The notes under the pieces were generated by a model. The model did no database searches and was not told the origin of the DNA. It worked only from the letters and a program-made list of their open reading frames with translations. A DNA stretch of 64,000 bases from Rhynchosporium graminicola (Eukaryota; Ascomycota; Leotiomycetes; Helotiales; Ploettnerulaceae), in the NCBI GenBank assembly GCA_900074885.1, contig FJUW01000073.1, positions 115,604-179,603 of the forward strand, in the 5' to 3' direction. Of this stretch, positions 11,346 through 36,105 are shown piece after piece. Numbering within the stretch: position 1 is the stretch's first letter; every line of letters begins with the position of its first letter. The translations under genes were made by a program, and so were the position numbers.

Positions 11346-11953
11346 ATGTCTTATCTAGTATGGGACCGCCTACACTCATGTTTCAACGAAAACACACCTT
11401 ATCCAAAGCTTGAAGTGCCGACAGAAGTCGATGAAGAAACTGCTGTTGAAAAGGTGACGGCCAAAGTCTCTTGGTTGGATCCATTTTTGGCTGGTCCCTG
11501 GGAGGACTGACCTTTCATTCACCCGATCAGAGCACGCCGAGTACGACGCTCGAAGAATATTTTCCGTGCGGAAACTTTGCCTCCGAAGCTAATGCGAAGC
11601 AGTGCGTATTTGAGATAATGTCTTATTCCTGGCTTCCCGTCGATTGCCACGACAACGCACCCAAACAGGAGTTTCTTGCGGGTGACTGGCGTTGTTGGAC
11701 CTTCGATGCACAGAACTTTGATTATCGTCAACTTTCAGAAGTCACAGTCGAGGAAATTTCCACCGGCATATATGGTGGCATCCATGTTACTTGGGGCTAT
11801 CATATTACACACTGTGCCTTCATGTAGAGAAAACTTCAAAGGGCTGCGATTAGCAGCCGACTCTTGGATGGTTATATCGGAAGCGTTAATCATACGCAAC
11901 ACTGTCAAATGCTTATGGTCCCGCGACTGTGGTCAATGGGTTCACATAAATGA
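11346..11953 (+). pseudogene. Broken HxxHC-type (UstYa/DUF3328-related) membrane-oxidase-like gene
   Basis: An ATG at 11346 opens a 54-residue frame (MSYLVWDRLHS...) that ends at 11510. The homologous body continues in another frame from about 11471. It shows a Cys pattern common in a large fungal family: CGNFASEANAKQCVFEIMSY, then WLPVDC, then HITHC and later NHTQHC, two HxxHC motifs as in UstYa-type proteins. A TAG at 11825-11827 falls where relatives carry Trp before an RKLxRA helix. Downstream coding stays in frame to TGA at 11951-11953. So there is at least one frame break and one nonsense change of RIP type (TGG to TAG). An unusual intron near 11480-11510 could replace the frameshift, but the nonsense codon remains. 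Located next to the RiPP-like genes, it may be a lost tailoring gene. Confidence 0.7.
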
Positions 11954-11964
11954 GAGAACTCAAG

Positions 11965-12207
11965 CGAGAGAGAAAACATGAAGCATCTGAGCTTGATCGA
12001 AAATCAGATATCCTGCCTTGTGAATTCTGGATTTTCTTTAACGAGGGCTACAATGGCAGCACCAACGTCCTTCTCGTTACCATACGTCTCCGCACAGTCT
12101 ATGGCCTTACATACGGCTTTCAATGCGAATAATACGGCCTGCTTGGAATGCTGGGCTGCCTGATAGACCCTCAGCTGAATTTGAGGCATAGGAATGCCAT
12201 TGTTCAA
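11965..12207 (-). pseudogene. Aldo-keto reductase N-terminal remnant
   Basis: The minus-strand frame 12207-12004 reads NNGIPMPQIQLRVYQAAQ, then ALKAVCKAIDCAETYGNEKD and VGAAI. This is the N-terminal AKR pattern NNGxxxPxxGLGVYQ...ALxxGYRxIDxAxxYGNExxVGxAI, including the catalytic-region Asp and Tyr (ID..ETYGNE). A TGA follows at RQDI*FSIK, where AKRs have Trp (DIWFxxK), again a TGG-type nonsense change. No in-frame ATG precedes it and the remaining ~200 residues of the barrel are absent. It converges tail to tail with the broken HxxHC gene. Confidence 0.75.
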
Positions 12208-13011
12208 TTAAATGGTAGCTATACTGGTCAATGGGGTATTCGACAAGCGTGTATCAAAGTCAAAATGATAGTTAAAGCGCATATATTTTGCCCCTTTTTC
12301 CACGTTGAGCTGCCCACTAACATGAATGGGTGATAACCATAATGTCGCCTTCACGCGTCCTACAAGTATTTTACAACTTCATCTTTTCAGTATCTCTACT
12401 ACTGTAGATCCTTATACTATTGAGAATTTTGTGTTCTAAAGGGCACCTACTACTCATCCTACCTCTCGCTTTATCTCAGTACTTCTAACACTATAAACTT
12501 CAACACTCTTAACACCCAAAGGAGCTTTCGTGTTATTACTACCCCCTCAGGTTAGTCTGCAGCCCCACTAGAAAACAGGGGGTAAAAGATACCTGTATAC
12601 CTCGGTAATTTCAGACCAGAATTGTGAGTAGCTTAGGGTGGAGGTAGGCGGGGCTTGGGAATATTAGGCTAGCGTTTCGGCGTTAAGTCTATTTTCAGGT
12701 CAATACACTAGTTTAACGTCATAGTTCGACCAATATACGACCAAGAAATCTACTGAAACCCTTCGTACTTCATACCTAGGTCGTTATAATAAGGTTTAAA
12801 GAATATTTTCTACAGCTAGTTACTTCTATATTGGAAGATAAGGGTAGCCGCGAGCATCGAGATTAGAGAAAACCAAATAGCATTCATTTCCACGATAGTA
12901 CGACTCTGCACGCTCCTTCTCAATATCCACATGATCACAAGCAAAACAGAATACCCCTCAAGAGACGAAATAACGATGATCCCTGAAAGAAATCAGTGCT
13001 TCAATTCCTTA
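12208..13011. other. Intergenic DNA downstream of the precursor gene
   Basis: About 0.8 kb of mixed composition. It includes the 3' side of the RiPP precursor gene at its right edge and AT-leaning sequence with no supported frame. Nothing else was recognised. Confidence 0.5.
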
Positions 13012-13361
13012 TTACTTTCGCTAAATAATGAGTTAGTTAATCATGTATTGAAGGCTTCATTTAGGAACGTGTAACGTACTTTGCCCCAGGCCGATCGAGT
13101 GGAAGGTTTAGTATCAGGGTTGGCGACGTCAACCTCGCTGCGTTTGCCCCAGGCTGACCGAGTAGAGGGTTTAGTATCAGGGTTGGCGACGTCAACCTCG
13201 CTGCGTTTGCCCCAGGCTGACCGAGTAGAAGGTTTGGTATCAGGGTTGGCGACGTCAACTACGTCCCGGTACACCATGGGCGGTTTGTATCCAATTGTTG
13301 GCAGAGTGGCGGCTCCCGTCACCAGTAAAGCGATCAAGACCTGAGCAGTTACGAACTTCAT
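13012..13361 (-). CDS. Secreted repeat precursor of a Kex2-processed (dikaritin-like) RiPP
   Basis: ATG at 13361; exon 1 13361-13080; predicted 59-nt intron 13079-13021 (GTACGT donor, CTAAC branch site, TTTAG acceptor); exon 2 13020-13012; 96 residues. Residues 1-20 are a signal peptide (MKFVTAQVLIALLVTGAATL). After a short leader come three copies of VDVANPDTKPSTRSAWGKR (from residues 35, 56 and 77), the first two followed by SE. Each ends in the Kex2 site KR. Read without the intron the third copy ends GKVRY...; splicing restores GKRK and a stop. This is the architecture of UstA-type precursors and Kex2-processed repeat proteins: signal, repeats, KR. The nearby pair of UstYa-type genes supports a RiPP role. 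The peptide contains Trp but no Tyr. An alpha-pheromone precursor is the alternative; the repeats lack the Cys/Gly pattern usual in filamentous ascomycete alpha pheromones. Structure confident; chemistry is inference. Confidence 0.85.
13081..13265 (-). repeat. Three tandem 63-bp coding repeats
   Basis: The repeats encode three identical 19-residue peptides joined by Ser-Glu. Six single-base differences are visible (four between the middle and last unit, two between the middle and first), and every one is silent, which points to selection on the peptide. Confidence 0.92.
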
Positions 13362-13404
13362 GTTGGAGTAGAGGAATAAAGATGTTGGAGTAGAGGAATG
13401 AAGA
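13361..13404 (-). repeat. 22-bp tandem duplication in the precursor's 5' leader
   Basis: 13361-13382 and 13383-13404 are the same 22-mer with one A/G difference. On the minus strand they lie directly upstream of the precursor ATG, so they form part of the 5' leader or proximal promoter. Confidence 0.8.
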
Positions 13405-14504
13405 TTTAAATCGGAAGGAGTATGAAGTGCAAGTATGTTGCAGGAGGATTCCTGGGCTCTATGTACTTGTGCTTTATGGTATATGAAAAGATGAGTTATA
13501 CATTTGCTTGGTCACTTCTGGATTTGCTCAGCAAAGCGAATACAATAATAGTCTGCTCGAGTAGCTCCGCTTTCTCCTAGGTTTCGCTCGCCTTCTGCGG
13601 CCTAGCTTTTGTATTGCTACGTTGCAGTGCATTACATCGTCAGTCCTGTGCGATTCATGCTCGCACATTTGAGGCAAATCTGCCATTGGCACAATCTCAC
13701 GACTTTCCTGTCAGAGGCCTGTAAAATCCTGATAAGTAAAAGTGAACAAGGCTCCGACTCAGCTTAGGCGCTGAGCGGGCCGGAAGGCCTGCGCAGGTCC
13801 TGGTGGAACGAAGCTCAGGCTCAAAGACCCATTTAAGAGCTCAAGCTCTCGGTGTTGAATCTCTTATATCTCCATTGGGTGACTTGCCGCGCACATAATT
13901 TTGGATCCACTCGGAGCCTGTAATGGGCACGTGATAGTCGGTTGTATATGTACGGTGTTAGGCTTGTTCAGCGTGCGCAGCGTGCGCTGAACATTGTGAT
14001 CTTTTGGTCCAGATGGCGTAGTTGGTGTGGGCCTAATCTCAACCCCGTTATAAAGCCATTGAACCTAATCAATACGAGGAAGCCAATGGAGCTCTTTCGT
14101 TTGACGGCAGATCTATCTCGATTCTATCTTTTGAATTTGACCATCAACGACCTTCCGTTTTAAGTAGTAGCTCCTAATCCAAGCTACACCTGGAGGGACA
14201 AAGGGGTAGCTTAGCGCACAATCGAAAAGCTTCGCGTTACTTGTTGTGAGGATACAGGGATAAAGATTACGTCAAAGCTTGTTATCAGCTCTAGTAGAAA
14301 GAGTGGTCGATGAGAGGAAGATAAGCCTAAATGTGATCAGTTCGTTGGCATATCGCTTTGAATTGCCGTATTGATTTGACCATTTGCTCATGTGGCTCTG
14401 TTTCAAACCATCATCTCTCAAATCTCTTCCCCTCAAAACGCTCATTCCGGGTGACTTTTATTTTTGAACATCAGAATCTATGCTCAAGCAGCAAATAATT
14501 GGAC
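13405..14504. promoter_or_regulatory. Divergent intergenic region between precursor and first oxidase gene
   Basis: About 1.1 kb separates the two divergent start codons, so this DNA should hold both promoters and any shared control sites. A solo LTR of the mini-TRIM family occupies 13919-14052. A TATA-like stretch for the precursor may lie near 13470-13490 on the minus strand. No transcription factor site can be assigned with confidence. Confidence 0.5.
13919..14052 (+). repeat. Solo LTR of the mini-TRIM family
   Basis: Reverse-complement match to LTRs at 22646-22770, 36106-36230 and 36521-36645. It begins TGTAATGGGCACGTGATAG and ends CAACCCCGTTATA. Flanks are GAGCC and AAGCC, a near-match for a 5-bp target duplication. 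It carries a 9-bp tandem duplication (CAGCGTGCG twice) inside an inverted motif that is TTCAGCG-CA-CGCTGAA in the other copies. This copy has not been visibly decayed by RIP. Confidence 0.82.
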
Positions 14505-15560
14505 ATGGACGATTTCAGGGACTTTTCAGGCGGCTCGGCTCTTGTTAGAAGCTCATTGGAACAAGAATCCACTGCTAATCCTCTTCTCGAGGAACAATTG
14601 GAGTGTCAAACGTTCCTCTCAAAGACAACTAATATCATGAGAGTGCCGATGAAAAGGACTAGACAACAACTGGTTCTCTGCAGCTTCGATAGTTTCAGTC
14701 GACTGCTCCCATGGCTTCTACTCCTAGCATTATTGATATGGAATATGGGTTATTATCAGAGGTCTGAACTTCGCAAACCCATGTATCCACAGTTGACTTA
14801 CAGTAAGTCGTCTTTTGTGGCCCGACCTCGACCATGTGCTGACAGTGATGGCAAACAAGGTCCCGTACAACATCTCCTCGAATATGAGGAACGGGTTTTT
14901 CAGTTGGGTTTTGCTCCTGATACCACAGAGTACCAGGGGCAACCGAGTCCTGAGCTTGATGAAAAGTGGCTGGAGTTGTATAGAAGTAAGTGACAGAGTA
15001 AATACATCATCACATGATTTTCTAACCGGCATACAGTGGGCATCTCTCGTGTTCCCCTTGAGACAGCGAAACATTTAATCAACAAAACTGTATTATTTCC
15101 TCACGACGAGGAGAAGAACTATGTTATTGAACTTGATGTTTTCCATCAACTTCACTGTCTTGTGGGTCACAATGGACTCTTGTTTTATATCTTCAATTTT
15201 ACTAACAAAGCCAAGAACATGATCCGGAAAGCTCTTCACCCTGATTACTATAAACCACATATGATTGCAGCCGATGGAGAAGATGAGCTACTCGGCTTTC
15301 ATCATATTGATCACTGTGTCGACACAATTCGGCAGTCTTTGATGTGTAGTGTAGATGTCAGCGTGCTAACGTGGGAATGGAATGAAGAGCGACAGCAGAA
15401 TTTGGAAAAGGGTGCCATTGTGCATACTTGTCGCAATTTTGATAAGGTTCGAGACTGGGCGAAAACTCACGCCATCGATCAGTGGTTTGACTTATGGCAT
15501 CACGAGATAAATGATCCACTCGATACTAGCACCTGGGAGGAGAGCTATACAGGAGAGTAA
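14505..15560 (+). CDS. UstYa-type (DUF3328) RiPP oxidase 1
   Basis: Exons 14505-14985 and 15037-15560, with a 51-nt intron (GTAAGT, CTAAC, ACAG) that joins AGA A to TG GGC as RMGIS; 334 residues. The ATG at 14505 is used rather than the upstream TTG in the same frame. Residues 67-84 are a single transmembrane helix (LLPWLLLLALLIWNMGYY) after a ~65-residue cytosolic tail. PSPELDEKW (147-155) is the usual conserved stretch before the catalytic part. HQLHC (197-201) and HHIDHC (249-254) give the two HxxHC motifs thought to bind metal in UstYa enzymes; SLMC and the CRNFDKVRDWA tail are also typical. In ustiloxin, asperipin and related pathways these proteins cyclise precursor peptides oxidatively. 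Placed beside a repeat precursor, it is the likely cyclase. Family call strong; substrate inferred. Confidence 0.9.
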
Positions 15561-17217
15561 AGAACTGGTTTGAGTATAAAGAGCGATTCGTAGGCATTTT
15601 GAAGAGCAAGCTATAAACACATGCATGTAATTACAGTCACCTATTCTTGATATATCGATTGCTGATATATCGATCACATGAGCGTACATGGTCATAGCTC
15701 TTACAGCTCTGATATCGAAGCTTTGGTTCGACTTGTATTTAGACATCAAGAATACCAACACTAAAACGTGTACGAGATCATATGACAGGATATGTTAAGA
15801 AGGCTAAGACGCACAGGAAAGAATAGCTCTGGGAAGAGTGCCAACTGCAGAGCTACTTTTCAGCACGACACCTGGCTGACTACTTTATTGTCTTCGAGCA
15901 GGATAAGGACTCAACTAGGACAGCGGATGACGTCGCTCTATAGTTATCCCAGTTGGGAAAGGATTTGTTCGTAAAGCTAGAAAAGAATTATGAGGAGGTG
16001 AAGGGGGATATGGAAGAGCAAGCTAGCATTGTCCCATGATTTTGGGGATTCGAAGTCTGAGAGGATGCCATGGCTCGAAACGAGCCGGTTCCCATCTCAC
16101 TCGGCTGGACTGCGCAACGGAGAGATCCCAGGCTCTTACCAACTGCCTCCCAAAATAGATTGGGATTGGGATGCTCAGTGCCGTGGATCGAGACCTGATT
16201 CGTATCTTAGTAGCGGCCGAGAGTATGTTAAGAGACGCCTACCAGCTTTGTAGCGATAGCTCTGCGGAACGGAGAATAAAGAACTGGTGTCGGATAGCCC
16301 CGAGACTAAATTCTTCAAGATAGTGGAAGTTCAAGCTTCAATTTACTGCTGCTGGGACATATACCTGCCTGTTGCGGAGAGAACGGGGAAATATTGTGGG
16401 GATTATGTTCGGCAGACATGCCAAGGTGCGGCAACTTTCCTTTACACTATCAAGTTTTTCAGAAAGTTCTGAGAATATGACTCTAAATGGAAAGTTGTAA
16501 CTCTTTGACACTTGTCTGTGTTGACAGGAAGTAAGAGATAACCGAAGTACGTAAGTACCTCGGTCTCGCTACAGTAGGCGCCTTCCTAACGGAAGCGTAT
16601 CCGAAGTGGCATCACCCACATGAATTTTAGCCGAAGGATCCTACGGGGTCAGCTCGGGGATCCATAAATGGCGCACTCTCATCAAGTGAGATTTAAAGCC
16701 AAGATTAAGTTGTGAGCTGAACGAATTGTAACGGCGTGGGATGGCAGGGAGGTACATGAAAGCGCCGAGCGTGTCTGGGTTCCCAAGCTTCCATACAATA
16801 CTGCTAGTTTCACTTCAGCTTGTTAGATTTGTGTGGCTCAGAATATCCGCTCGTGAGTCTTATGGTAAAACCAGCAAACTTGTTTTTGGGGAATACTGGC
16901 CCGATAAGAGGGGAAGCTTGGAAGCCTGGCCAGCTCTTGCGCCAAGATTAACGTGGCAGGGATCGGAAGCATATCGTGAGGAGTAGCATGAGAGTCAGGG
17001 GGTTGGGATATTTCGCCATTGTGGATATCAATTCAAAAATCTTAATTGAGGCAGCAATGGGTCACGAACGCAAGCCATAGAGATGTCCCCGGGCTAGTTG
17101 AAATTGAGTGAAAGTATACGAATTATCGGTATCTTCTGATGCCCCAAAACGCAGTTTCTCAGGTCTTTTTCATTCCGTACAACGAATTCTTTCTTCGCAA
17201 CTCGACGCACAGTTACT
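15561..17217. other. Intergenic DNA between the two oxidase genes, with a possible relic
   Basis: About 1.65 kb with no intact gene. At 15835-16037 a plus-strand stretch looks coding: one frame reads SYFSARHLADYFIVFEQ, then TADDVAL, a TAG, then LGKDLFVKLEKNYEEVKGD. It ends in TGA at about 16037. I do not recognise it. Short frames at 16029-16253 and 16741-16986 show no family feature. The promoter of the second oxidase gene must lie toward the right end; a pyrimidine-rich leader precedes 17218. Confidence 0.4.
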
Positions 17218-18175
17218 ATGGTGTCTAAATCTTCCATAGGCTACGCTGCTCTGGCAGAGGATGAGGAGGGTGGAATATCAACCAAGAACCTGTCGGTGTC
17301 TGCTATATCTCGATCAAGTTGGGGTAATATAAGTTTTGGACTTTTATTGATATCCAATCTAATTCTTTTCGGGGTTTCCTTGTCGAACTTTTACCGGACT
17401 ACGGATTGTGACTCTGCCCTCTCTGGGTTTGGGGGTCATCAGAAAACACATTCTATGAACGATGATCTTAAGCGTACTTCGTCTTACTGTAAGCTAGTCT
17501 TTATCATTTTGTTTGGCTGAAAAGTGTCTCCAAAATACTAACTTGGATTTCAAAGCTCCTTTGCTGGATATCATCGACATGAGCCCCAAAGAATTGATTT
17601 TTAATGGGAAGCTCAGCGACAACACCTCCATATATCGAATGCCACCGTCACCAGAAGTTGACGAAGCCTGGAACTACATCTCAACAGAGGGACTAGAAGT
17701 CATTACCGTTCCCTCTTACGCGATTGAGAAGTCAAAGAAAGATCCCGACCTCAGCGTCAAAGCTCCCAGTTCATGGAATCGAGGCTCGGACGCTTTCCTA
17801 GTTCAGATCGACGTCTTTCACCAAATTCATTGCCTGAATGAGCTTCGGAAAGAACTGTATTATGATCAGTACTATAACGCCCCTCCCGACGCGTTGCACA
17901 GAGATCATAAAAACCATTGCATACATATGCTGCTACAGAACATCATGTGTCATGCTGATGTGGAGATCATCAGTCACAACTGGGTCCACAATGACCACAT
18001 TCCAGACCCCAAAGAGCGACCATTCCCAGATTTCAATGTAGTTAAACAGTGTAGGGACTTTGGTAAGTTGTTAGACTGGGCTAGGGAAAATGGGATAAGG
18101 CAGCTGGCTGAGAAATGGAACGCTCTGAGAATTCCATTGGGTGGAAAAATCGTTTCAGGTGATGGATATGCTTGA
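17218..18175 (+). CDS. UstYa-type (DUF3328) RiPP oxidase 2
   Basis: Exons 17218-17488 and 17556-18175, with a 67-nt intron (GTAAGC, TACTAAC, AAAG) that joins SSY to SPLLD; 296 residues. Residues about 36-57 form a single membrane helix (NISFGLLLISNLILFGVSL). YSPLLD (90-95) and SIYRMPPSPEVDEAW (115-129) are the classic UstYa entry motifs. HQIHC (179-183) and HKNHC (208-212) are the paired HxxHC motifs, followed by IMCHADVE (220-227) and the CRDFGKLLDWA tail. It matches the standard length and layout better than oxidase 1, whose sequence is more diverged, so the two are likely separate enzymes rather than a recent duplicate. In dikaritin clusters two UstYa proteins often act together in cyclisation. 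Transcribed in the same direction as oxidase 1. Confidence 0.92.
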
Positions 18176-18261
18176 ATTTGAAAGAATTTCATGTAAATAC
18201 GGTCTGAGATATCCGTTTCTAGTCTATCTTGCAAACAAATAATGATACTCAGTATTCCCAT

Positions 18262-18403
18262 CTATCCAAATACTTGCTCAGACTCCCCTGTACCGCTGCC
18301 TTTGGAGTTTCTTGCCGTTCCATGGTCCTCATTTCCAACCAGCGCGGCAATCATAGGGGGCGTGGAGGCAAACGCTTGGAGTACCTCCCTCTCTGTGATA
18401 TTA
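18262..18403 (-). pseudogene. 3' end of an unknown gene truncated by transposon DNA
   Basis: The minus strand from about 18403 to a TAG at 18262-18264 reads ITEREVLQAFASTPPMIAAL, then VGNEDHG and GTGESEQVFG. It looks like a real hydrophilic C-terminus. Upstream (above about 18405) the sequence turns abruptly AT-rich and no frame continues. The stop lies 86 bp from the stop of oxidase 2, tail to tail. It may be the last piece of another cluster gene. Family unknown. Confidence 0.45.
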
Positions 18404-18830: not shown

Positions 18831-19599
18831 CTTCAAATCTTTTATTATTATATTAAATAAGAAGCTTAATCTAGCTAGAGATAACTTGATATAATAGCTT
18901 ATTACTAAAGTAGTTATTCGATAACTACTTATATATAACCGAGATTCTAGAGACCTCTCGGATAGCTATAAATCAGGGTTAATTTAGTATTACGTTCTGA
19001 GGTTGCGCATACTACTTGGATTGCGCGAGCTAGTAAAGACGAGTAGCCTAGGGATTATCTTATTATATTTAGTAGTAATTATAAGGATAGTTAGTTAGTA
19101 GGGATTCCTTAGGCTAGAGTTATATAATAGAGTCTAACTTAGCAGGAGTCTAGAGGTAGAAGTTACCTGCCTCTAATAATAAGTACTCTAATACTAATAT
19201 TTTTAACTTTAGCGTAGCAGGGAATACGCGCTACTTATCGCGTACTGCGTTAGTCGCTCTCTATTATATACTATTAGCTTATTCCGCTTATAACTAGAGT
19301 TCCTTAAGTATCGTAGAGGTAGTAATAATAGTATTATTATCTAAAGCGGCTTTATTAACTACTTCGGGTTCTTTAACTTATAGGGATTCGTTCTATAGTC
19401 ACGAGGCTTCCTCTTCTTCTTAGTATCTTCGATCTTATTATATTATAACCAGGGCTACTACTACTATCCCTTATAGTAGTAGTAGTTTTTATAGTGCTTT
19501 CGGCTTAATTAGTTAGACTAATTAGTACTAGAGTCGTTTATCTTCTATACTTTAGGATATATATCTTATTCGTATTATAAGAGTATATCTACGCGCTTA
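18831..19599. other. AT-rich decayed transposon DNA
   Basis: Follows the LTR at 18592. All frames are closed by dense stops. Its position suggests the 5' interior of the outer Gypsy element, but no protein motif can be read. Confidence 0.45.
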
Positions 19600-22500
19600 T
19601 TTTCTTTCTTAAGGATATAACTAATCGTATAATTAAACTATAAGAGGAGTAATAACTACTATATTTACTACTCTATAAGCTACTATACTATTATAAAATA
19701 CTCGAGGTTCTTATAATTAATATAAATATAGAATTCTTATATGCTTTTTAATTCACTTTACTATTCCTTAAGATAATATATAATTACTTATATTTCCTTA
19801 TTATAGATTTCATAATTATATTTAGCTAGAGCGTTTTTCTTCGAGAAGAATATATAAAGTTATAAGTATCTTTAGTCGTCGAATAAATATATAAGTACCT
19901 TTTCTATTACTTATCTAGAAGAGTCTATTTTAAGTATTATTTCTTAGTTAAAGTTAAACTATATTAGTATAAGTCTAGTAATAAATATATCTTTTAACTT
20001 CTTAAACGCTTTATCTATAGCTTTATCCTATTACTATAGCTACTTCTTATAAGTAAGCTATATTAGTAGTAGTATAATTATTAAGTAATTCTTAATAAAT
20101 ATCTAGTAGAAATTCGTAAATCCTAAGAAGCTTTATACTCCTTTTACTAAGGTTAAGAGTTCCTATTCTCGAATCGCTTATACTTTCTTAAGGTCTATTT
20201 AAATACTCTCTTTTATATCGATTATAAACCTAAGGTATTTCGTTATTTATACTTCGAATTCGTACTTTTTAATATCTAGTTATTATTATAAGGGGAATAT
20301 AAAGTAAATAGTATAAAAGCTTATCTATATTATAAGGAGAATTAACTAAGAAGGGAAAGAAAGAATAAGAGTCTCTCTTCTAAGAAAAGATAATACCGCG
20401 GCCGCTAGAAGTAGTAGTATTAGAATACGTATAATAATACGTTAAGTACTAATATAGACGCCTTAGGCGTTAAGTATACTAACGGGTATAGCTTATTATA
20501 GTTATAGTCTAGCTTTATATAATCTTACTATAACTTTCGCTACTTACTTTTAGTAATAATAGTAGTTACTATCTAAATAGATTAAGATATTATTATTATA
20601 AGTAGAATAGAATTCGTTTAAGTAGTTATATAAAGCTTAATTAATATACTATTAAAATATACTTAAGGTATTCGTAAATCTAAAAGGAGTTACTAGTTAC
20701 TTATATAGATTATATCTTATACGAAAAGCTATCTTCTATTTATTACTAATAGTAATATATATCTTATAGAAAGTAATAATAATATCTAGTTTTATAAACT
20801 ATTTCAATTTTTTAATATTCTAGAGAGTCTTATAGATTAGTAATAATAAGTATCGATCTTTCTTTATAATTCGATTTAACTTATAGTAATCGATATAAAA
20901 TCGTAGCTTATCTCTTAGTTTCTTTACAAATAAGATAAGAGTAATAATAAGCGAGTTACTAACTCGAATAAATCCCTTATTAAGGAGCTTATAAGAGTCT
21001 TCTATATTACTAAGAGTTTATCGCGAGATATATTATATAAAGGGCCCAAGGGTATTATAAGTTCCTTACTATTATATAGTTCGAGTTTAATCTTATAGTC
21101 GATCTCGGGACTCTATAGTAATAATAGTACGACTATTTTCTTATTATTATATAAGTCGAGGTACTTATATAGCTAATTAGGAAGTTTTATTCGCAGGTTA
21201 ATCTTTATCTTTATTATAAGAGCTTTCTAGATATCTACTATACTTATAGTAAATACTTATATCCTTTTATATAGTTATTCTTAAGTAAGCTTATTAAATA
21301 CTATTACTAATATTACGAAGTAGTCTAGCTCGTAGTCCAGCTCTTATACCTACTTACGTAAAGTCGTAATAATTGTATTAATATAGTATTATAACTTCGA
21401 GGCGATTATATATATATTATTCTTCTTAAATTATAATAATCCTAAAATCAGATCGTAACCTTCTAAGTATAATACTATAGAGAAGAAAGCTTTAGATTTC
21501 TTATATTTATTAATATCTATCTCTATAACTAGTACTTCTATAATAGGACTTCTTTCTCTTTTAAATAAACTTATTTCGATAAGGGAAATAAGGAATTACT
21601 AAAAGTAATAATAAGTAGTAAAGCTAGAATTAATAATACTATATAAAAAGTATCTAGTATTAAGTAGAATCTTAATATACTACCGTTTATTAATTATTAT
21701 AAATACTAAGAAAAAGGCTTTATTTATTATATCCTTAAACTAATCCTAAGCTTTTACTATTACTACTTAATTAATCTGCTTTTATTTCTATTAGCGATTT
21801 TAGATAGAAGCTATTCTTTTCCCGAGCTCTCTAGCTTAGAGCTTAATCTATCTATCTCGACTTCCTTTAGCTTCCACTTCTTTATCTTTATCTTAGCTAT
21901 TACTATATAGCTTTTCTTCTTCTTAGTTATAGCGAGTTTTATATAGTAGTTATAGATTATATATCTATCTTATCTATAGTAGAAGTGAAGCCGCTCTACT
22001 TTCTATCTCTTAATCTTTATAGAGCTTACTAATTAGAGTTCCTTCTTTATTATTATAATTATAGTAATAATAGGAGTTACTTTCTAATCTATCGAGTCTA
22101 TTACTTATTAGTCTATCTTAAGAGATTACTCTTATATTTACCTCTATTACTCTACTCTAGCTAATAGCTTCTTAACTTCGGCTAGCTAGTCGCTAACGAT
22201 ATATAATTACGAATAGTACTTTTCGTATAATTATTCTTCCTTTATATTAATAGTAATATAGACTTAGGTAGTAATAACAATAGCCTTTATATAACTCTTC
22301 TTAATTACATCTAATTAGTTCTATCCTTCTGCTTCAAGGAGTAGCTAAGTAAAATTGTTAAGGAATTTATTTAAAAGATAAGTTTCTTACTTATTCTTAT
22401 TTAGCTAGCTTATAGCTTTCTATAGTAGTAGAAGTTGCGAAAAGTAGTAGCTATTTATTAAAATAGCCTTTCGACTATTAACTGCCTTTATCGTTAGATA

Positions 22501-22645
22501 AAGCTTATCTATAGATAAATTCTGCTTATAGCCTCGCTTAAGAGATAGCTAAACGCGTATTATATTCGTTCTCTCTTATTACTAATAATAATAGTATCGA
22601 TCTCTAGCTTCGCTCGTAGGATACCCTCGAATTAGAAGTATAATC
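19600..22645 (-). pseudogene. Minus-strand Gypsy gag-pol relic
   Basis: Minus-strand translation shows gag sequence near 22636-22556 (FEGIL*AKLEID), reverse transcriptase LRFYIDYYKLNRIIKKDRY near 20900-20840, LDEFY-like YLNEFYSTYNNNILIY near 20600, and after a solo LTR insertion the frame resumes with LDIKKYEFEV near 20260. RNase H-like AIDKAFKKLKDIF follows near 20000. It is a RIP-decayed Gypsy copy whose 5' LTR and leader are at 23250-22771. Confidence 0.75.
20287..20490 (-). repeat. Solo TACCCG-family LTR inserted in Gypsy pol
   Basis: Interrupts the minus-strand reverse transcriptase between GLQLD-type sequence (near 20510) and KKYEFEV (near 20265). Matches the LTR copies at 7960-9476, 23046-23250 and 25140-25341. 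Confidence 0.75.
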
Positions 22646-22770
22646 TGTAACAGGGTTGAGGTTAGGCTCACATTAACTACGCCATCTGGACTAAGAGATC
22701 ACATTATTCAGCGCACGCTGAATACGCCTAACATCGTACATATATAACCGACTATCACGTGCCTATTAAA
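22646..22770 (-). repeat. Solo LTR of the mini-TRIM family
   Basis: 125 bp, in reverse orientation to the copy at 13919. On the plus strand it starts TGTAACAGGGTTGAGG and ends GTGCCTATTAAA. It sits where the Gypsy leader should meet gag, replacing about 270 bp that are present in the matching copy at 25838-26104. Confidence 0.8.
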
Positions 22771-23250
22771 ATATATCCTAGCGTTATTATAATTACTACT
22801 TATATAATAATCATATAAATAGCCAGATCTATTATATATAATCCGAGGCGTTTATCTTTATATTATAGATAAGATAGCCGGATCTACTATATATAGTCCG
22901 AGGCGTCTATCTTCGTATCGTAGGTATATATATAATAATAGTAAGACTAAGATACTAGCTTTCTTACGCACGCGTATTATCTATTACTCGAAAGCAAATC
23001 TTCTTTTACTTAGTTAAGAATATTAGAAATAAGTTAATTCAAATATTATAAAGCGAATATAAAGTATATAATATAAAAGCTTATCTATATTATAAGGAGA
23101 ATTAACTAAAGAGAGAACAGAGAAATAAGAGTCTCCCTTCGAAGAAAAGATAATCCCGCGGCTGCTAGTAGTAGTAGTATTAGCATACGTATAATAATAC
23201 GTCAGGTACTAGCGTAGACGCCTTAGGCGTTAAGTATACTAATGGGTGCA
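22771..23250 (-). repeat. Inverted arm: 5' LTR (23046-23250) plus leader of the minus Gypsy
   Basis: Reverse-complement match to 25140-25838. The LTR reads TGCACCCATTAGTATAC from 23250 leftward. The leader includes GCTTTCGAGTAATAG and GTAAGAAAGCTAGTATC, which the right arm shares. Confidence 0.75.
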
Positions 23251-25139
23251 ACCCGTCATAAATCTCCTAGGATCTAGAATCTAGTTCTGATTTACTAAAT
23301 TAGTATTATAGCTTTTCACTTTAATATAAAACGCGAAAGCTCTAAGTTATTCTTTACTAGTATCTATAAGATAAGCTTTATCTTATAAGATCATCTGGAT
23401 AATAATTCCCGTAAGGATCTCGATACTAAATAACTTATAGCTAAAAAGCTATCAGAATAATATTATACTCTTAAAGAAGCCTTTTCTAAGCGGGATTCTA
23501 ATATTCTTCTATTATATCGCTTATACGATTATAAAATTATCTTAGAGGCACTACTACCTAATATATATTAGCCTCTATATTAGTAGTCTATAGAGGAACT
23601 ATAAGTAACTAAGGAGTATCTTGTAAAGAACTTAAATAAGGGATTTATTAAATCTAGCTAAAGTCTTTTCGTATTACTTATACTATTCTTTAAGACAGCT
23701 AATAGAGGCTTATAGTTCTAAATCTCCTATCGTAAGCTTAATACGATCACCTGAAAGGATTTATATCTAATATCTAAGATCGATAAGCTTTGAGCTTATA
23801 TATCTAAAGCTATAGTTTTTAAAAAACTAGATATCTAAGTAATATTTAATTATATTTATATAGACTCTAAATCAGAGAAGTATATTATCTTCTGAACCCG
23901 CTTCGGATCTTATAAATATAAGTTACTATATTTCAAGCTCTACAATAGACTTAGTGTATACTAGCGATATATAAATAATATACTACTAGACTATCTAGAC
24001 TATTTCTATATAACTTACTTAGGTAATATTCTTATATACTCAGAAATGATCTAGGAATACGAGAAGTATATTAGATTTATACTATAATACTTAATAGATA
24101 CTAGACTCTAAGTAGATCTTAAGAAAAGCGAATGCTATATTACTTAGACTAAATACGTTAGATATATTATTACTATTAATAGAATCGAGCCAGATCCTGA
24201 GAAGGTAATACTATTAATAAACTAGAAGTATCCCGAAATAGTAATAGCTATAAAATTTTTCTTAGGATTCTATAGCTTCTACTATTAATTTATTTGGAAT
24301 TTCAGTCTTATCGCTAAATCTCTCTTAATACTTACTAAGCCTATATTACTATAGAATTTCACTAGCGATTATAAGAAATCCTTCGATAAGCTATAGTAAT
24401 AGCTACTATAGTACAGAAACTATATTATTTCGACTTAGAATTATAAACTAAACTAGAAACTATTATCTCTAATAGTAAAATAGCTAGAGTTATCTCTCAA
24501 TTATATAAAGATACCTAGTAGTATTTAATTAGATTCTATTTCTATATTCTTAATAGATATAAACTAAACTAGAAGATCTATAATAAAGAACTATATGCTA
24601 TTATTAAGTCCTTTCGGAAATAGAGATTTAAACTTATATTATTATAGTACTATACTAGCGTATATATAGACTATCGATCCTCAGAGTATGTTATAAATAC
24701 TAAGGTCTTAACTAGTAATTAAGCTAGATAGATAGAATTTCTACTCGAAGTTAACTTTCAAATTATATATATACTTAGTAAAGATAACGCTAAAGCTAAT
24801 ATCTTTAGCTATAAGAAGTAGAACTTAAAGATATAAGAATAGCAGGAATATAATAGTAGATCTCGGGTTTTATAACTACTAGATCGCTTAGATCTTAGGA
24901 TTAATACGAAATTAGCTAAATATTTCGTTAATTAGATAAGTTATATATACTTAATATCCTTAGGTATCGATATACTATTAGAACTTATATATAACTATTT
25001 TAATCTTATTAAGAAATTGAACTTATCTAACTAAGAATTATTCTCTAATAAACAGAATATATTAGAAAATAGTTATATTATTAATAATAGATTACTACTT
25101 TATAATAGTTATTTATATTTATAACGCTATATATCGGGT
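23251..25139 (+). pseudogene. Gypsy reverse transcriptase/RNase H fragment between inverted LTR arms
   Basis: Plus-strand translation gives PLYRLYDYKI near 23510, FKKLDI near 23818, SYKYKLLYFKLYN near 23910 and the catalytic-site relic YITYLGNILIYSE near 24010 (DD changed to GN). RNase H-like KNYMLL follows near 24580. It is cut on the left by the inverted LTR at 23250 and on the right by the LTR at 25140. Stops are numerous. Confidence 0.75.
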
Positions 25140-26196
25140 TATACCCGTTAGTATGCTTAACGCCTAAGGCGTCCACGCTAGTACTGACGTATTATTATAC
25201 GTATTCTAATACTACTGCTACTAGCGGCTGTAGTATTATCTTTTCTTCGAAGGGAGACTCTTATTTCTTCTTTCCCTCTTTAGTTAATTCAGCTTATAAT
25301 ATAGATAAGCTTTTATATTATATACTTTATATTCGCTTTATAATATTAGAATTAACTTATTACTAATATTCTTAACTAAATAAAAGAAGATTTGCTTTCG
25401 AGTTATAGATAATACGCGTGCGTAAGAAAGCTAGTATCTTAGTCTTACTATTACTATACGTATACTTATAATATAAAGATAGACGCCTTAGACTATATAT
25501 AGTAGACCTTGCTGCTTTACTTATACTTAATATTCTTAATTAAATAAAAGAGGATCTGCTTTCGAGCGGTAGATAATACGTGTATATAAGAAAGCTAGTA
25601 CCTTAGCCTTACTATTATTACATGTATACTTACGATACGAAGATAGACGCCTCGGACTATATATATTAGATCCGGCTATCTTACTTACGATATAGAGATA
25701 GACGCCTCGGAGTACTTACAATAGATCCGGCTACTTTACTTATAATATAAAATAGATACTTCGAATTATATATAATAGATCTGGCTATTTATATAACTAT
25801 TATATAGATAGTAATTATAATAACGCTAGGATATATAGTTCATAATAGCAGAAGAATAGCCTCTCTAGTAGCTACTAGATACCTTCGAGGCATAAAGACG
25901 ATAAGTTATTAAGCTAGTAGTATAATAAGTAAGTTCGATAGCTACCTTAGCCGATAGGATCGAAGATATAGAATAATAAAACGTATAGCTAGTGCTACTA
26001 GTAGTACTAACCCTAAATAATATAATATAGTCGATAACTTCGGAGCTAACTATAGCTATAAAGTAATATATATCGAAACCTGAAAAGTTCGATAATACTA
26101 ACTTAGCTCTATACTTCTAATTCGAGGGTATCCTATGAGCGAAGCTAGAGATCGATATCACTACTATTAGTAATAAAAGAGAACGAATATAATACG
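25140..26196 (+). mobile_element. Plus-strand Gypsy 5' fragment: LTR, leader, gag
   Basis: LTR 25140-25341, leader to about 25840 with a partial internal tandem duplication, then gag-like sequence: KPEKFDNTNLALYF near 26070 and FEGIL*AKLEIDITTISNK near 26110-26170. It is the same family as the minus copy that begins at 23250, in the opposite orientation. The match ends at 26196, where unrelated sequence begins. Confidence 0.7.
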
Positions 26197-28191
26197 CTAT
26201 TCCGGACGCCTTGTCGCGAAGGGAGCAGGATACGTTAGGTGAGGACGATAGAGGGTCTCGATTTCGCAGATTTCTCGAACCGGATTCCGTGAAAGACTAG
26301 CCGGCACTTGACGGGGAGTAGTAGTTACTACTATAGTATTAGACTTCCTAGCGATATAATTTGATACGATAATAGCTCTAGTTATTATAGCACTAGATAC
26401 TCTAGTAATATAATCCGACACGATCCCCCCTACTAATCAGTGGGACTCCGAGGGACCCTTCTAGGATAAATAACTAAACGAATACTAGGAAAAGGCGGTC
26501 GAAAACGATATAACGTATAAAACCGTACTCTATACTATTCAGAGCGGAGCCCGGTTATTACCTAGCGAAAGTAAGCTTAAAGTGCAAGTAGAAGACTATA
26601 GTATCGATACGAAAGGAAGACTACGTTATCAGGGCAAATTATAAGTACTAAGAACTGCATATTCTATAGACTCCGCGGAAGATATAGCGGGAGATAATAT
26701 ACTAAGAACGAAGTTGATCTAATCTATTTATAACGTACTGATATATAGGTATCCCGGGAGGGACTCTATTGCTTTTATACTAGGAAGGTAATTCTACTAG
26801 CTTTTATAATCGAAATATATCTAATAATTCTTAAGGAACTGCGACTACTATAGAAGAAATAAGGTATAGAGAGAATATAAACACGGACTCCTTCGATTAC
26901 TACTAGTACTCGACTAATTCTTCTAGGAGATCTTAATAGACTTTATAACTGATTTACTAAACTCTTAAGGGAACTAATACCTTTAGGTAATTAAGGATAG
27001 ATTAAGTAAGTCTATTATATTAGAGGCGATACTTAATATAAAAGCAGAAGAGTACGCGGAGAGGTTTATAGACTACTAGGTATATTACTATAGTATGCTA
27101 AAAGCTATTATAAGCGATAGAGGAACGAATTAGATGAGTATATTCTGGAAGACGTTTTGTCGACTTTTAGGCGTATACTAGAGATTAAGCTTCGTATACT
27201 ACTTATAAATAGATAGAGGCCTAGAGAGACTAAATTAAGAGGTATAAGCTTTTTTACGAAATTTTATTAATTAAGAGTAGTCGGACTAGAAGAAGTAGCT
27301 CCCTATAGTATAACTCGCGTTAAATAGCTAATATTAAGCGGGACTCGGAATAAGTCTATTCTTCGCAACGAATAGCTACGAAGCGCTATTCCTTATACTA
27401 TTAGAACTAGAGACCGAGTAAAATACTAAACTTAGGTCGAGTGAAAGAGCTAGAGCTTTTATTACGAAGATAAAGAATATTACTAAGTTATACTAGGTAA
27501 ATATAGCTAAGGCTACGTAGAAATAAGAGAATAATACTAATAAAACTAAGACTCTAGTATTAATCTACTAAAAAGGTAATAAGGTATAGCTAGACTTACG
27601 TAACTACTAAACGGACCGTCCGAAGAGGAGCTTAGATACTAAATATACTAAATATATAGTAGAAGAAGTACTTTCGCTATTATCCGTATGATTATCCGGG
27701 ATCCTCGGGAATATCTACTTAGTATTTTATACGGATTTACTACGACTTACTAGTAACGACCTCTTAATAAGGTAAGAGACTAATAATAAATAACCGGATC
27801 TAGTCTTATTTAAGACGCACGAAGAGTTTTCGATAGAACAGATCCTTTATATAAGAGATAAGAAGAGAGAAAGAGGAAAGTTTAGGGAAGTACTTATAAA
27901 ATAGTTAAATTACTATAAACTAATATAGGAACCCTTAGAAAACTTAGCGGACTCTGTAGCTTTAGACGAATACGAGCTGAAGTATAGGGACGCTAATATA
28001 TATAATAGACCCTTATCTAAATAGGAAAAGAAGACGAAAAGGGAAAAGCGAAACTCTAAGTAGGAGGAAGCGGACCCCGGGGGAAATAATAAGGAGAGAG
28101 TAGTTAATAGGGATAAAAAGAGGAGGGAGGGTTTCTGATATAATTTAGTCGGGAGCTAGGCGTTTTCTAATAGAAGAAGTTATATCTTTAT

Positions 28192-28210
28192 AAAAAAAAA
28201 AAAAAAAAAA
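28192..28210 (+). repeat. A19 homopolymer
   Basis: Nineteen consecutive A downstream of the integrase/chromodomain frame. It could be a retroposed poly(A) tail or simple slippage; there is no target duplication that decides it. Confidence 0.6.
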
Positions 28211-29070
28211 GATCGATTTTAGAATTTGATTTTAGATTTTTAATTCTTAAGAAGAAAACGCTACGGAAAGGATACGTATTCTACTATATTTCCTACGGAG
28301 TCCCTAGGAGGCTCGGCGGGGTCCTAAAACGAGAGCTAGAGATACTCTACTAGTACTAAAAGAGAGTAAGCTAACGAAAAACAAGCGGAGTCCGATAATA
28401 ACTTACGTTTAACTCTATTAGGTAATAATAGTAATAATAGAAGTAGTGACCTCGGAAGCTAGGGGATTATAAAATATTAGTTACTAATAAGGAATAAGCA
28501 GGGACCGAATAAACTTACGCGGAGAGAAGACTAGAGGATTAGAGGGGCTTAAGGGCTTTCTAGGCCTTTAAGACTTTAATAAGATCGATATAAGTATTAT
28601 TTCTAAATAGAGTATAAGGCGACGAAAAATAGGCGGAGTATAATACTTACTTATTAGTATCAGTAGAATAAGTCTAAACGGAGTAGGAGATTTAAGGACT
28701 ATTACGTAAGCTAACTATTTTCGCGCGGAATCCGGGGAAAACTTATAAGTTCTTATAATTCTTCTTCTTATCCTTATAGCGGATAAAGGATCAGGAGCGA
28801 TTCGACTGAGTTTATTAGGATTCCGTTCGAGAACGGGCGGGGTATAGTACTTATAGCTTAGTCGATATAATTAGAGCCCGAGAGGGTATAAGTAATATAG
28901 TAAATAATAAGAGATATCTGACTCCGCTAGTTTTAGCGCGGACTCTAATAGTATTATAGTAGGATATTTAATATATTTTTTCTTTTAATAGAAGGAGAGG
29001 AGGGACTTACCTTACTATAGTTATAGTTATTAAATAGAAGAATGAAGAGGAGTCTAAAGAAGTAGAAAGT

Positions 29071-29290
29071 CTCTTCTTTTATAACGTCCTAGCCGGATCG
29101 AGCGATAATAAGAGCGGAGCGCTAGCCTAATGCGGCGAGATAATAACAAAGGAAGCGAATAATAATAGAAGGAAGTATAATAATACTTTTATAACGTATT
29201 AGCTAGATCGAGCGATAATAGAAGCGGAGCGCTAGCTTAATGCGGCGGGATTATAATAAAGGAAGCGAACGATAATAGTAGAACGCTTAT
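29071..29290. repeat. Two 110-bp tandem repeats
   Basis: GATCGAGCGATAATA and GCGGAGCGCTAGC recur with a 110-bp period (AGCCGGATCG at 29091, AGCTAGATCG at 29201), differing by transitions. Confidence 0.75.
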
Positions 29291-29372
29291 CGTTTAGTAA
29301 TAGAACGCGGTTATGAACTACAGGGGGATTCTATAACTATTTATTATAAGTCTCCGCTAGAAAACAAGCGGG

Positions 29373-29569
29373 AGGAGGGGAGTAATATAAGAGTTAAGCC
29401 CTTAGGTTATAGTGCTAGTATTACTAGTACAACTCGCTGACTAAGGCTCGGTTAAGCCTTAGTATTGCGCACTTTTTCTTGCGGCTTCCGGTTAGATTCT
29501 TACTCTCTCCTTATCGAACTTGTTGAATACTACCATGAACCCTCGTGTATATATTGTTCACCCGTGACA
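29373..29569 (+). repeat. Probable 3' LTR of the preceding Gypsy fragment
   Basis: A purine tract (GCGGGAGGAGGGGAG) ends at about 29372. The following ~197 bp end in CACCCGTGACA, a plausible LTR end. No partner copy exists in the window. Confidence 0.4.
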
Positions 29570-32270
29570 ATATACTAGTAGTTAAGAAAGTAAGAAATCC
29601 AAAAGGGAGACCTTACGGAGACTATTAGATAATTAATAGTAGGACTATAAGAAAAATATACCTTTTACTAAATACTTAGTACTTACGGGATAAGCTAGCT
29701 AAAGTAAAGATATATACTAAGTTATATTAATATAACGCGTTTAATTTAATCCGAATTAAGAAGGGATATAAGTAGAAGACTGCTTTCGTATTACCTTTAG
29801 GGCTATAGGAATATATAGTAATACTGTTCGGCTTAACTAATGCCTAGCTATATATTAAAGGCAGAATAATAATATTCTTAAGGACTTTATTAGGAAATTC
29901 GCTATATACTACCTAGATAATATTTTAGTATACTCGGAGACTATCCAGGTATACTAGAGCTACTTTACTTAAGTTATAGAAGTATTATATAAAGTAGATT
30001 CTAGACTAAAGATATCGAAATATGAATTCTTAGTTAAGTAAGTTACTTTTCTAAGGTATATTATTTACTTAGAAGAGATAAGTATTAACCCGGAGAAAAT
30101 CAGAGCTATAAAGGAATAAGAGTCTCTAAAGAATGTTAAGAGTATATAGTTATAATTAGGTTTTACTAACTTCTACTAATAGTTTATTAGAGACTATTCT
30201 AAGATCGCTAAACTACTCACGAGCTTAATAAAGAAGAGCGTTCCTTTCATATAGACTAGCTAGTATAAGGAGGCCTTCTAGAGGATTAAGTAAGAATTCA
30301 TAAAAGAACTAATCTTATATAGTTTCGACGAAAAAAAGGAAAATATAATAGAAATAGATACCTCTGATACTTATACTAGCGTAGTATACCTGCAGCGAGA
30401 TAATAAAGGATAACTATACCTAGTCGCTTACTTTTCAGAAAAAATATCTCTAGCTAAATAGAATTATAATATCTATAAGAAGGAACTTATAGCGATTATT
30501 AAAGTACTTAAATACTAGAAAATATACTTATAAGAAGCTAAGTTCCTAGTTATCGTCTATACTAACTATATAAATCTTCGAACCTTTATAACTACTAAGG
30601 TCTTAGATAATCGTTAATTAGCTCGATAGTCAGAGGAACTCGCCTCTTTTAACTTAGTTATTAAGTATATATAGGGAAAAGATAATACACGAGCAGATAC
30701 TCTAAGCAGATTACTAGGTTATAAAGATAATAAGGTCTATAATAAGACTGCCTTATTTAGATAGCTAGATAATAGAGATATAGTTACTAATATTAGAGAA
30801 GCTACTATAATTAAGTAAGAAATTAAGGGACCTTAGTATAATACCTTAAAGGAGGCCTAGAAGAAGAATAGAATATCCTTAGATAAGACTAAGGAACTTA
30901 TTATAAGGAATATAATTAAGAATAAGATTATACGAGTTAATAGGAAAGTTTAGCTTCCGCTAAGCTTAGTAGAAATATATATTAAAGAATAATATAAGCT
31001 TCTCGTATATAGATACTAAGGGATACGAAGAACGTATCTAATGATTTCAAAAAACTACTAGTCGGAAAGATTCCGCTAAGTAATTAAAGAAGTACTAGCT
31101 AACTATAGTACTTATATTAGAAATAAGTCTTTCTGATATATACCTTATAAGCAGATAATTATAATACTAATATTACTAATATCTTGGAAATCGATATCAT
31201 AGGACTTCATAGGGCTATTACTACTATCGAAGGACCCGGTCACGGGAGTTAGCTATAATATAATACTTATTATTATAGAAAGACTTACTAAGTATATAAT
31301 CTTAGTACTAATCTTATCTACTCTTATAGCTAAATACTTAGTATAAGCATACCTTAAGAAAGTAGTCTCTAAGTACGGAGTACCAGAAGAAATCGTATCA
31401 GATCGAGATAAGTTATTTATATTAAAATTCTGGAATACTTTAATAGGGTTCTTAGGGACTAAACGATAACTATTAATAGCTTTCTATCCTTAGACTAATA
31501 GAGGAAATAAAAGAATAAACTAAGTAGTTAAAGTATACTTACGTTACTATATTAACTATTTATAAAATAATTAGATAGAATTACTATTACTTATAGAATT
31601 CATATATAATAGCTCGATTACGGAAATAATAAAAGTTATACTATTCTTCGCGAATTATAGTTACGAACCTATCGCTTATAGAGAACTTAACTTAATAATT
31701 AAGGATAATAATATAGCTCGTATCTAGGTCCGAAATATCTAGGACCTTTATAAGGAACTCGCAGAAGAACTCTAGTTTATAGTAGAGAAGAATATATACT
31801 ATTATAATAAGAATTATAATTAGGAGCTAACGCTATAGGAAGGGGATAAGGTTTACTTTCTACGAAAAAATATTAATAAATAGAGACTAAGTAATAAGTT
31901 AGACTATAAGAAACTTAGACCTTTTAAAGTTAAATATATTAAAGAACCTTTGAATTATAAACTCTAGCTACTAGCTATAATAAAGAAGATATTCCTAATA
32001 TTCTATATATCCTTATAAGAAAAAGTACTACCGGGAGCACTACTAGCCCCGAAGATATATGCTGAACTAGTTAACTTACTCGTAGAATACGATATAGAGG
32101 AGCTACTAGATTATTAATATAAACGAGATATTATTAGATACCTAGTGAAATAAAAGAACTATCTATATTCGGAAAATATATAGGAACTTAAGTTAAGCTT
32201 TTACTACTTAGTATTACTAGCTAATTTCTATCGATAAAACCTAGATCTGCTTAGAGCAAGTCCGTAGGGT
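29570..32270 (+). pseudogene. Chromovirus pol relic (RT, RNase H, integrase, chromodomain)
   Basis: Plus-strand translation gives YYLDNILVYSETI near 29910 (reverse transcriptase YLDD relic), YNIYKKELIAIIK near 30470 (RNase H), KYGVPEEIVSDRDKLF near 31372 (integrase core with the D of SDRD), and EYDIEELLDYQYKRD then YLVK*KNYLYSE near 32090-32170 (chromodomain with Trp as stop). The gag and protease end is missing. The 3' LTR is at 32892-33387. Confidence 0.8.
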
Positions 32271-32799: not shown

Positions 32800-32891
32800 C
32801 ATAATAAAAGAAGAAGATAGCTATAAGTAGATATCGATATTTCCTTAGGTATACTTAAGCGTAGGGACACGCTAAGATAGAAAGGGGATAG

Positions 32892-36024: not shown

Positions 36025-36105
36025 ACTATTCATGAAATATCCTCAATTCGATAAAGCATATTTATTACAATATTATCTTACTCGATTTTACTTCTATACT
36101 CGAAT

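What the first reader, a model, noticed from the sequence alone, without database searches (positions are those of the whole stretch)
11346..18403. Compact, apparently undescribed dikaritin-like RiPP cluster
A secreted precursor with three KR-terminated peptide repeats lies divergently next to two intact genes with the full UstYa/DUF3328 layout (single membrane helix, PSPEvDeaW-type motif, two HxxHC motifs). UstYa enzymes are known to cyclise such repeat peptides in ustiloxin, asperipin-2a and phomopsin pathways. No tyrosinase, methyltransferase or transporter is seen within the island, so this may be a minimal cluster, or one pruned by transposons. The peptide sequence VDVANPDTKPSTRSAWGKR is not one I know from a characterised product.
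Basis: partly seen in the sequence, partly recalled or inferred. Interest (0 to 1): 0.92.

Follow-up and report, generated by a model that had tools for sequence, protein, structure and literature searches.

The report
Split peptide gene cluster, barley fungus
The barley scald fungus carries a gene predicted to encode a secreted peptide with three copies of one 19-residue repeat, beside two intact UstYa-type oxidase genes that would likely turn the cut-out repeats into a modified peptide; it is a new member of a known fungal peptide class, with an unusual tyrosine-free, tryptophan-bearing repeat.

Summary
A 96-residue precursor (13012-13361, minus strand) has one predicted intron whose removal makes the third repeat end in KR like the others; all 6 variable bases among the three 57-nt core copies are silent (about 4e-4 by chance). 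Two intact UstYa genes lie beside it. A word-based search of 5.8 billion proteins found no precursor relative at E<=1; one weak hit (E=2) shares the AWGKRSE repeat end. The two oxidase types share a contig length in 4 of 7 species found in both hit lists, plus one metagenome contig; the precursor was not found there. 'Minimal cluster' is doubtful: a broken-looking companion gene lies at 11.3-12.0 kb, and about 15 kb further left, across AT-rich, largely RIP-mutated DNA, stands an intact copper amine oxidase (1 of 5 in the genome) beside another broken-looking companion. Likely reading: a Kex2-cut, UstYa-modified (dikaritin-type) peptide whose cluster was split and partly decayed. Expression, modification and product are untested. 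New member of a known kind.

The parts
13080..13361 (-). Precursor exon 1: predicted signal peptide, short leader, repeats 1-2 and most of repeat 3
13021..13079 (-). Predicted precursor intron (59 nt); splicing makes repeat 3 end in KR
   Evidence: signals read by eye; no RNA evidence
13012..13020 (-). Precursor exon 2 (R, K, stop)
14505..15560 (+). UstYa-A gene, exons 14505-14802, 14860-14985, 15037-15161, 15216-15560; 297 aa, identical to RCO7_11740
   Evidence: model
17218..18175 (+). UstYa-B gene, exons 17218-17488, 17556-18175; 296 aa; 89% to a Rutstroemia sp. NJR-2017a BBW protein
   Evidence: model of that relative
11346..12000 (+). Broken-looking companion gene (UstYa-like, HxxHC motifs): frame change and in-frame stop; only the piece 11450-11824 was tested
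   Evidence: outer limits by eye
13362..14504 (.). Shared 1.14-kb region between the divergent precursor and UstYa-A start codons
13918..14053 (.). 136-bp dispersed element inside the shared region; 53 other places listed in the genome
1..9500 (.). AT-rich, RIP-mutated repeat DNA separating this island from the copper amine oxidase island left of the window (C47:109452-111819)
19000..40000 (.). AT-rich, RIP-mutated repeat DNA to the right

Best explanation
This is a gene cluster that likely makes a dikaritin-type peptide (a fungal RiPP): a precursor predicted to be secreted and, once spliced, to carry three identical KR-ended repeats sits beside two intact UstYa oxidase genes. Inferred course: the precursor enters the secretory pathway; Kex2 would cut after each KR and a Kex1-type carboxypeptidase would trim KR, giving SEVDVANPDTKPSTRSAWG or a shorter form; the two membrane-anchored UstYa proteins, with paired HxxHC sites on the lumenal side (motifs shown, topology and copper inferred from CctR), would oxidise side chains of the repeat, most plausibly by a bond or desaturation involving Trp, its only aromatic residue. 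The cluster was probably larger: a copper amine oxidase and two broken-looking UstYa-like companion genes lie around it, the amine oxidase part cut off by RIP-mutated repeat DNA. Shown: gene models, motifs, silent repeat differences, recurrence of the oxidase pair, remnants and repeats. Not shown: expression, splicing, cleavage, modification, product, activity.
For: Repeat precursor with a predicted intron that makes repeat 3 end in KR; 6 of 6 variable core bases silent; one copy found. Two intact PF11807 genes with PSPE.D..W and paired HxxHC; AlphaFold models put each HxxHC on its own helix behind a long N-terminal helix and a disordered start (UstYa-A itself; the 89% relative of UstYa-B), the layout described for the copper enzyme CctR (PMC12435403, section 3 read). 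UstYa-A-type and UstYa-B-type proteins share a contig length in Rutstroemia (282611), Cercophora (2311677), Apodospora (4845350), Tricladium (588761) and one ENA contig (32862). DUF3328 genes peak at the position next to Kex2-repeat genes across fungi (PMC7329392, section 7). Of 8 other matches to the companion piece, 6 lie within 5 kb of UstYa matches on C53, C64 and C75, and C53 and C75 also hold repeat-precursor candidates. Copper amine oxidase: 1 of 5 in the genome, about 0.5 kb from a companion-like gene.
Against: No Tyr or Phe in the core; 65.6% of repeat sequences of UstYa-accompanied precursors contain Tyr, and Trp is not enriched there (20.5% against 24.5%) (PMC7329392). No precursor relative at E<=1, though both oxidase types recur. 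In 3 of the 7 species in both lists (Mollisia, Thozetella, and Aspergillus terreus by entries from two strains) the contigs differ, and two of the four same-length cases are contigs of 2.3 and 4.8 Mb. Two companion genes look broken and the precursor gene's own RIP index is +0.58 (350 bp, noisy), so the pathway may be dead. No PF00264 tyrosinase match on C47. UstYa-B has 89% but UstYa-A only 55% identity to Rutstroemia, so the pair may not share one history. Kinship of companion and UstYa families is weak (hhalign E 0.0036, probability 9%); one companion match (C35) has no UstYa match on its contig.
Confidence: 0.74

Rival explanations
1. The cluster is a relic: the precursor and two oxidases are still readable but the pathway is no longer expressed or complete after repeat insertion and loss of companion genes.
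For: Two broken-looking companion genes; RIP-mutated DNA on both sides, composite index mostly +1 to +1.6 against -0.02 to -0.52 in the island 10-18 kb; precursor gene alone +0.58; a dispersed element in the shared promoter; P0122 is the only member of its 90% cluster, so no close sister copy is in that database.
Against: Precursor, UstYa-A, UstYa-B and the copper amine oxidase all read intact; repeat differences are only silent; splice signals intact.
Confidence: 0.25
2. The precursor releases unmodified linear peptides (a signal or effector), and the two oxidases act on another substrate.
For: No Tyr or Phe in the core; most Kex2-repeat precursors (6120 of 7878) have no UstYa gene within 15 genes (PMC7329392).
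Against: Precursor and UstYa-A share one divergent promoter region; the scan found no other repeat precursor in the window; all but three putative mating factors and pheromones lack a UstYa neighbour (PMC7329392).
Confidence: 0.15
3. The copper amine oxidase island is an unrelated neighbour, and the cluster really is just precursor plus two oxidases.
For: About 15 kb lies between, about 12 kb of it AT-rich or RIP-mutated; copper amine oxidases are ordinary fungal enzymes (recalled); the clustering is one case noticed after the fact; the gene beside it matches the companion piece only at E 0.0135, 30% identity, and its N-terminal piece matched nothing better than E 0.11 elsewhere.
Against: Only 5 such genes in 55.3 Mb; it stands divergently about 0.5 kb from a companion-like gene whose relatives mostly lie beside UstYa genes; both islands are isolated: the 30 kb C47:75604-105603 has no ORF of 110 aa or more.
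Confidence: 0.45
4. The repeat ORF is a chance tandem repeat, not a gene.
For: No annotated homologue found; no RNA data here.
Against: Signal-peptide-like N-terminus, intron that makes the third KR, only silent changes, position beside UstYa genes.
Confidence: 0.04

Closest known systems
Dikaritins: ustiloxin, phomopsin, asperipin-2a (PMC7329392, sections and passages; PMC10512285 and PMC9233826, passages)
   Same: Kex2-type repeat precursor next to UstYa/DUF3328 genes
   Different: Core without Tyr; no tyrosinase match on the contig; other core sequence; 3 repeats against 16 in ustiloxin
Victorin (PMC9233826, passages; original paper not held)
   Same: Repeat precursor, UstYa-type class, cereal pathogen; a copper amine oxidase in the victorin cluster is recalled, not checked
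   Different: Victorin is cyclised between Phe and Leu; this core has neither residue; that the amine oxidase belongs to this cluster is inferred
Epichloecyclins, GigA (PMC9233826, passages)
   Same: Repeat precursor of a grass-colonising fungus
   Different: Tyr-Ile ring in a nonapeptide; this core has neither residue
CctR, DUF3328 copper hydroxylase (PMC12435403, section 3 read)
   Same: Disordered N-terminus, membrane helix, paired HxxHC on helices in the models
   Different: Acts on a non-ribosomal peptide; reaction of UstYa-A and UstYa-B unknown
Venturia inaequalis dikaritin clusters (PMC9632046, passages)
   Same: Same search logic; nine clusters in a fungus that, like Rhynchosporium, grows under the cuticle
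   Different: No sequence comparison was made here

Membership tests
Kex2-processed repeat protein (KEP) | N-terminal signal peptide | tested here: inconclusive
   Hydrophobic segment from residue 3 (Kyte-Doolittle 1.83 over 19 residues); no signal-peptide predictor was available
Kex2-processed repeat protein (KEP) | Several near-identical repeats split by KR/RR sites | tested here: met
   Three repeats; two end GKR as read, the third after the predicted splicing
Dikaritin (KEP modified by UstYa homologues) | UstYa/DUF3328 gene beside the KEP gene | tested here: met
   Two PF11807 genes starting 1.1 and 3.9 kb from the precursor start
Dikaritin (KEP modified by UstYa homologues) | Released core is cyclised or otherwise oxidised by the UstYa proteins | not testable with these tools
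   Needs LC-MS and deletion strains
Dikaritin, ustiloxin/phomopsin/asperipin subtype | Tyr in the core | tested here: not met
   VDVANPDTKPSTRSAWGKR has no Tyr; so not filed under this subtype
Dikaritin, ustiloxin/phomopsin subtype | Tyrosinase in the cluster | tested here: not met
   22 PF00264 matches in the genome, none on C47
UstYa / DUF3328 copper enzyme | Two HxxHC motifs behind one membrane helix | tested here: met
   HQLHC+HIDHC and HQIHC+HKNHC; long N-terminal helix (UstYa-B by its 89% relative). Hydropathy peak 2.03 in UstYa-B, but 1.57 in UstYa-A, just under the usual 1.6
UstYa / DUF3328 copper enzyme | Copper- and oxygen-dependent activity | not testable with these tools
   Inferred from CctR (PMC12435403)
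Victorin-type cluster | Copper amine oxidase belonging to the cluster (recalled) | tested here: inconclusive
   Gene reading intact 15-17 kb away across AT-rich, largely RIP-mutated DNA
Fungal alpha-pheromone precursor | Repeats of the alpha-pheromone type (recalled as Cys- and Trp-bearing) | tested here: not met
   No Cys in the precursor

The most novel reading that the evidence does not exclude
A Trp-centred dikaritin: two UstYa copper enzymes form a Trp cross-link (or desaturate the core) in a 17-19-residue Tyr-free peptide, finished by a copper amine oxidase and once assisted by a second, Pfam-less HxxHC membrane-oxidase family that travels with UstYa genes; the cluster was broken in two by a transposon in a barley pathogen.
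Probability: 0.2. Interest if true: 0.68.

Novelty: new member of a known kind. Interest (0 to 1): 0.43.

Why it matters
[quoted passage not shown] A Tyr-free, Trp-bearing core beside two intact UstYa genes would test whether UstYa chemistry reaches Trp. R. graminicola colonises the barley apoplast; the passages I saw of its genome paper treat PKS, NRPS, terpene and DMATS enzymes and its main text never mentions DUF3328 (PMC5118889), so its RiPPs look like open ground.

Tried and rejected
Minimal-cluster reading: weakened by the companion genes and amine oxidase. Pheromone reading: no Cys in the precursor. First UstYa-A model (315 aa) kept an intron; replaced by the 297-aa model identical to RCO7_11740. 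The first repeat scan (dibasic sites only, 44 sequences) found this precursor and one Arg-rich low-complexity frame; it could not see R-delimited repeats or loci fetched later. The wider scan found three distinct places in 292,473 bases, overlapping loci counted twice (window, C53, C75). PDB by sequence: no match at E<=1; by fold: 63 matches at E<=10, 0 at E<=0.001. Rfam: none at the gathering score in the window. tRNA: none. Paper searches: 'AWGKR'/'WGKR' (20 papers, none on fungal RiPPs by its title); Rhynchosporium with RiPP, UstYa, Kex2, dikaritin or secondary-metabolite words (15 of 28 listed; 64: 12 of 16 listed; 93: 9 of 9 listed); UstYa, dikaritin and Trp or KEP words; victorin and amine oxidase. 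None of the titles and abstract starts listed describes this cluster; the listed papers were not all read. In its main text PMC7329392 names Rhynchosporium under types G-3 (di-His) and G-6 (Tyr), neither of which fits this core; whether its supplement holds this precursor could not be checked (no supplement look-ups).
Full report
Source. The window is C47:115604-179603 of a 55.3-Mb, 121-contig genome, and C47 is 179,603 bases long. The best hit of UstYa-A is RCO7_11740 of Rhynchosporium graminicola on a contig of 179,603 bases, and my final spliced model is identical to it. The published R. commune UK7 assembly has 55.59 Mb in 163 scaffolds (PMC5118889, passages), close to but not the same as the held assembly. 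So this is the barley scald fungus.

Precursor. On the minus strand, 13361-13012, one predicted 59-nt intron with ordinary fungal signals gives 96 residues: hydrophobic N-terminus, short leader, three repeats of VDVANPDTKPSTRSAWGKR (the second and third led by SE, the first by DV), and a final K. Without splicing, the third repeat would lose its KR; with it, all three end GKR. Of 57 core positions 6 vary among the copies, all silent third positions; with 26-27% of single changes silent, chance gives about 4e-4, treating the six as independent. One match in the genome. Among 1495 word-sharing candidates from 5.8 billion proteins the only hit up to E=10 is P0001, E=2.0, an unnamed 71-residue ENA protein with a signal-like start and two repeats ending AWGKR-SE. 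Its local score is 98 against at most 58 in 2000 shuffles, but it was picked from a huge database, so this is a lead only.

Oxidases. UstYa-A (14505-15560) and UstYa-B (17218-18175) read intact. No Rhynchosporium record is among the 120 listed of 310 hits of UstYa-B, so it may be unannotated. Both have the family motifs; the hydropathy peak of UstYa-A is 1.57, just under the usual membrane cut-off, that of UstYa-B 2.03. AlphaFold models from alignments of 31 rows that I chose among the hits (mean pLDDT 71 and 74, pTM about 0.6; for UstYa-A, for the 89% relative of UstYa-B) show a disordered N-terminus, a long helix at about 48-88, and each HxxHC on its own helix, as reported for CctR, whose motif binds two coppers (PMC12435403, section 3). 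Copper binding here is inferred.

Recurrence. I compared contig lengths in the two hit lists by eye (113 listed for A; 120 of 310 listed for B). One unnamed ENA contig of 32,862 bases also has both. Equal length stands in for same contig; on the 2.3- and 4.8-Mb contigs it does not show adjacency. The precursor search brought no hit from any of them, but such small genes may be unannotated.

Surroundings. The tested piece at 11450-11824 has eight matches besides itself up to E=1: two each on C53, C64 and C75, all within 5 kb of UstYa matches, one on C35 (E 0.006) with no UstYa match on that contig, and one on C47 beside the amine oxidase (E 0.0135). Three of the family members scanned have no Pfam match below E 0.03; HxxHC motifs are shared; profile comparison lays them on those of UstYa at E 0.0036 but with 9% probability, so kinship is suggestive only. 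The window copy and the copy beside the amine oxidase both look broken by frame changes and stops; introns were not ruled out by RNA. The copper amine oxidase at C47:109452-111819 (PF01179 E 1.9e-93, last exon E 2e-10) is one of five in the genome. The composite RIP index is -0.02 to -0.52 over window 10-18 kb and -0.13 to -0.67 over the amine oxidase island; between them it rises from +0.1 through +1.0 to +1.2 to +1.6 (window 1-8000) and +0.6 (8-10 kb); the 350-bp precursor gene alone gives +0.58, a small sample. A 1.5-kb piece of the spacer has 40 scored copies of 768 candidates, one of the right flank likewise (40 of 844). C47:75604-105603 holds no ORF of 110 aa or more.

Mechanism. Shown: gene structures, motifs, conservation pattern, neighbours. 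Inferred: secretion, Kex2 cutting, trimming, oxidation by UstYa-A and UstYa-B. The core lacks Tyr; in PMC7329392 (section 7) 65.6% of repeats of UstYa-accompanied precursors have Tyr, and the P-3 type with Trp and Pro shows that Trp-bearing, UstYa-accompanied precursors were known. Victorin shows that Tyr is not required for the class (Phe-Leu link, PMC9233826, passages). Trp is the only aromatic residue here and so the likeliest site, but other C-H oxidations remain possible.

Verdict. It belongs to a known kind; what is new is the precursor, the probable split architecture and the companion family. Interest is moderate.

Noticed in passing
L043:6198-6431, minus strand (C53:61197-61430): Second repeat-peptide precursor candidate: repeats LSYREAAPEPAPEPQ[VL]R among four UstYa matches (C53:56.0-63.5 kb) and companion matches; R-delimited rather than KR.
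   Followed up: partly
L051:293-700 (C75:1150456-1150863): Third precursor candidate with signal-like start and many DIESVD repeats split by dibasic sites, about 0.6 kb from an open companion frame and about 5 kb from the nearest UstYa match.
   Followed up: partly
C18:409189-414100 (L047): Tyrosinase and UstYa matches lie together, a possible ustiloxin-like locus; frames carry several stops or introns; the scan found no repeat precursor in the 10 kb fetched.
   Followed up: partly
window 13918-14053; also 22648-22768, 36105-36228, 36521-36645: Dispersed element of about 120-136 bp with imperfect 10-bp terminal inverted repeats (by eye) and an internal palindrome in this copy; 53 other places listed in the genome; one copy sits in the region shared by the precursor and UstYa-A.
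   Followed up: partly
window 16920-17220: Frame remnants upstream of UstYa-B resemble the annotated N-terminus of the Rutstroemia protein, so upstream DNA may be conserved; with 89% identity for UstYa-B but 55% for UstYa-A this hints at a recent transfer of UstYa-B. No benchmark of other genes was possible.
   Followed up: partly
window 46389-46901 (-): Open frame of a small protein with a secretion-signal-like start and four cysteines; the frame has no Pfam match; a possible secreted protein.
   Followed up: no
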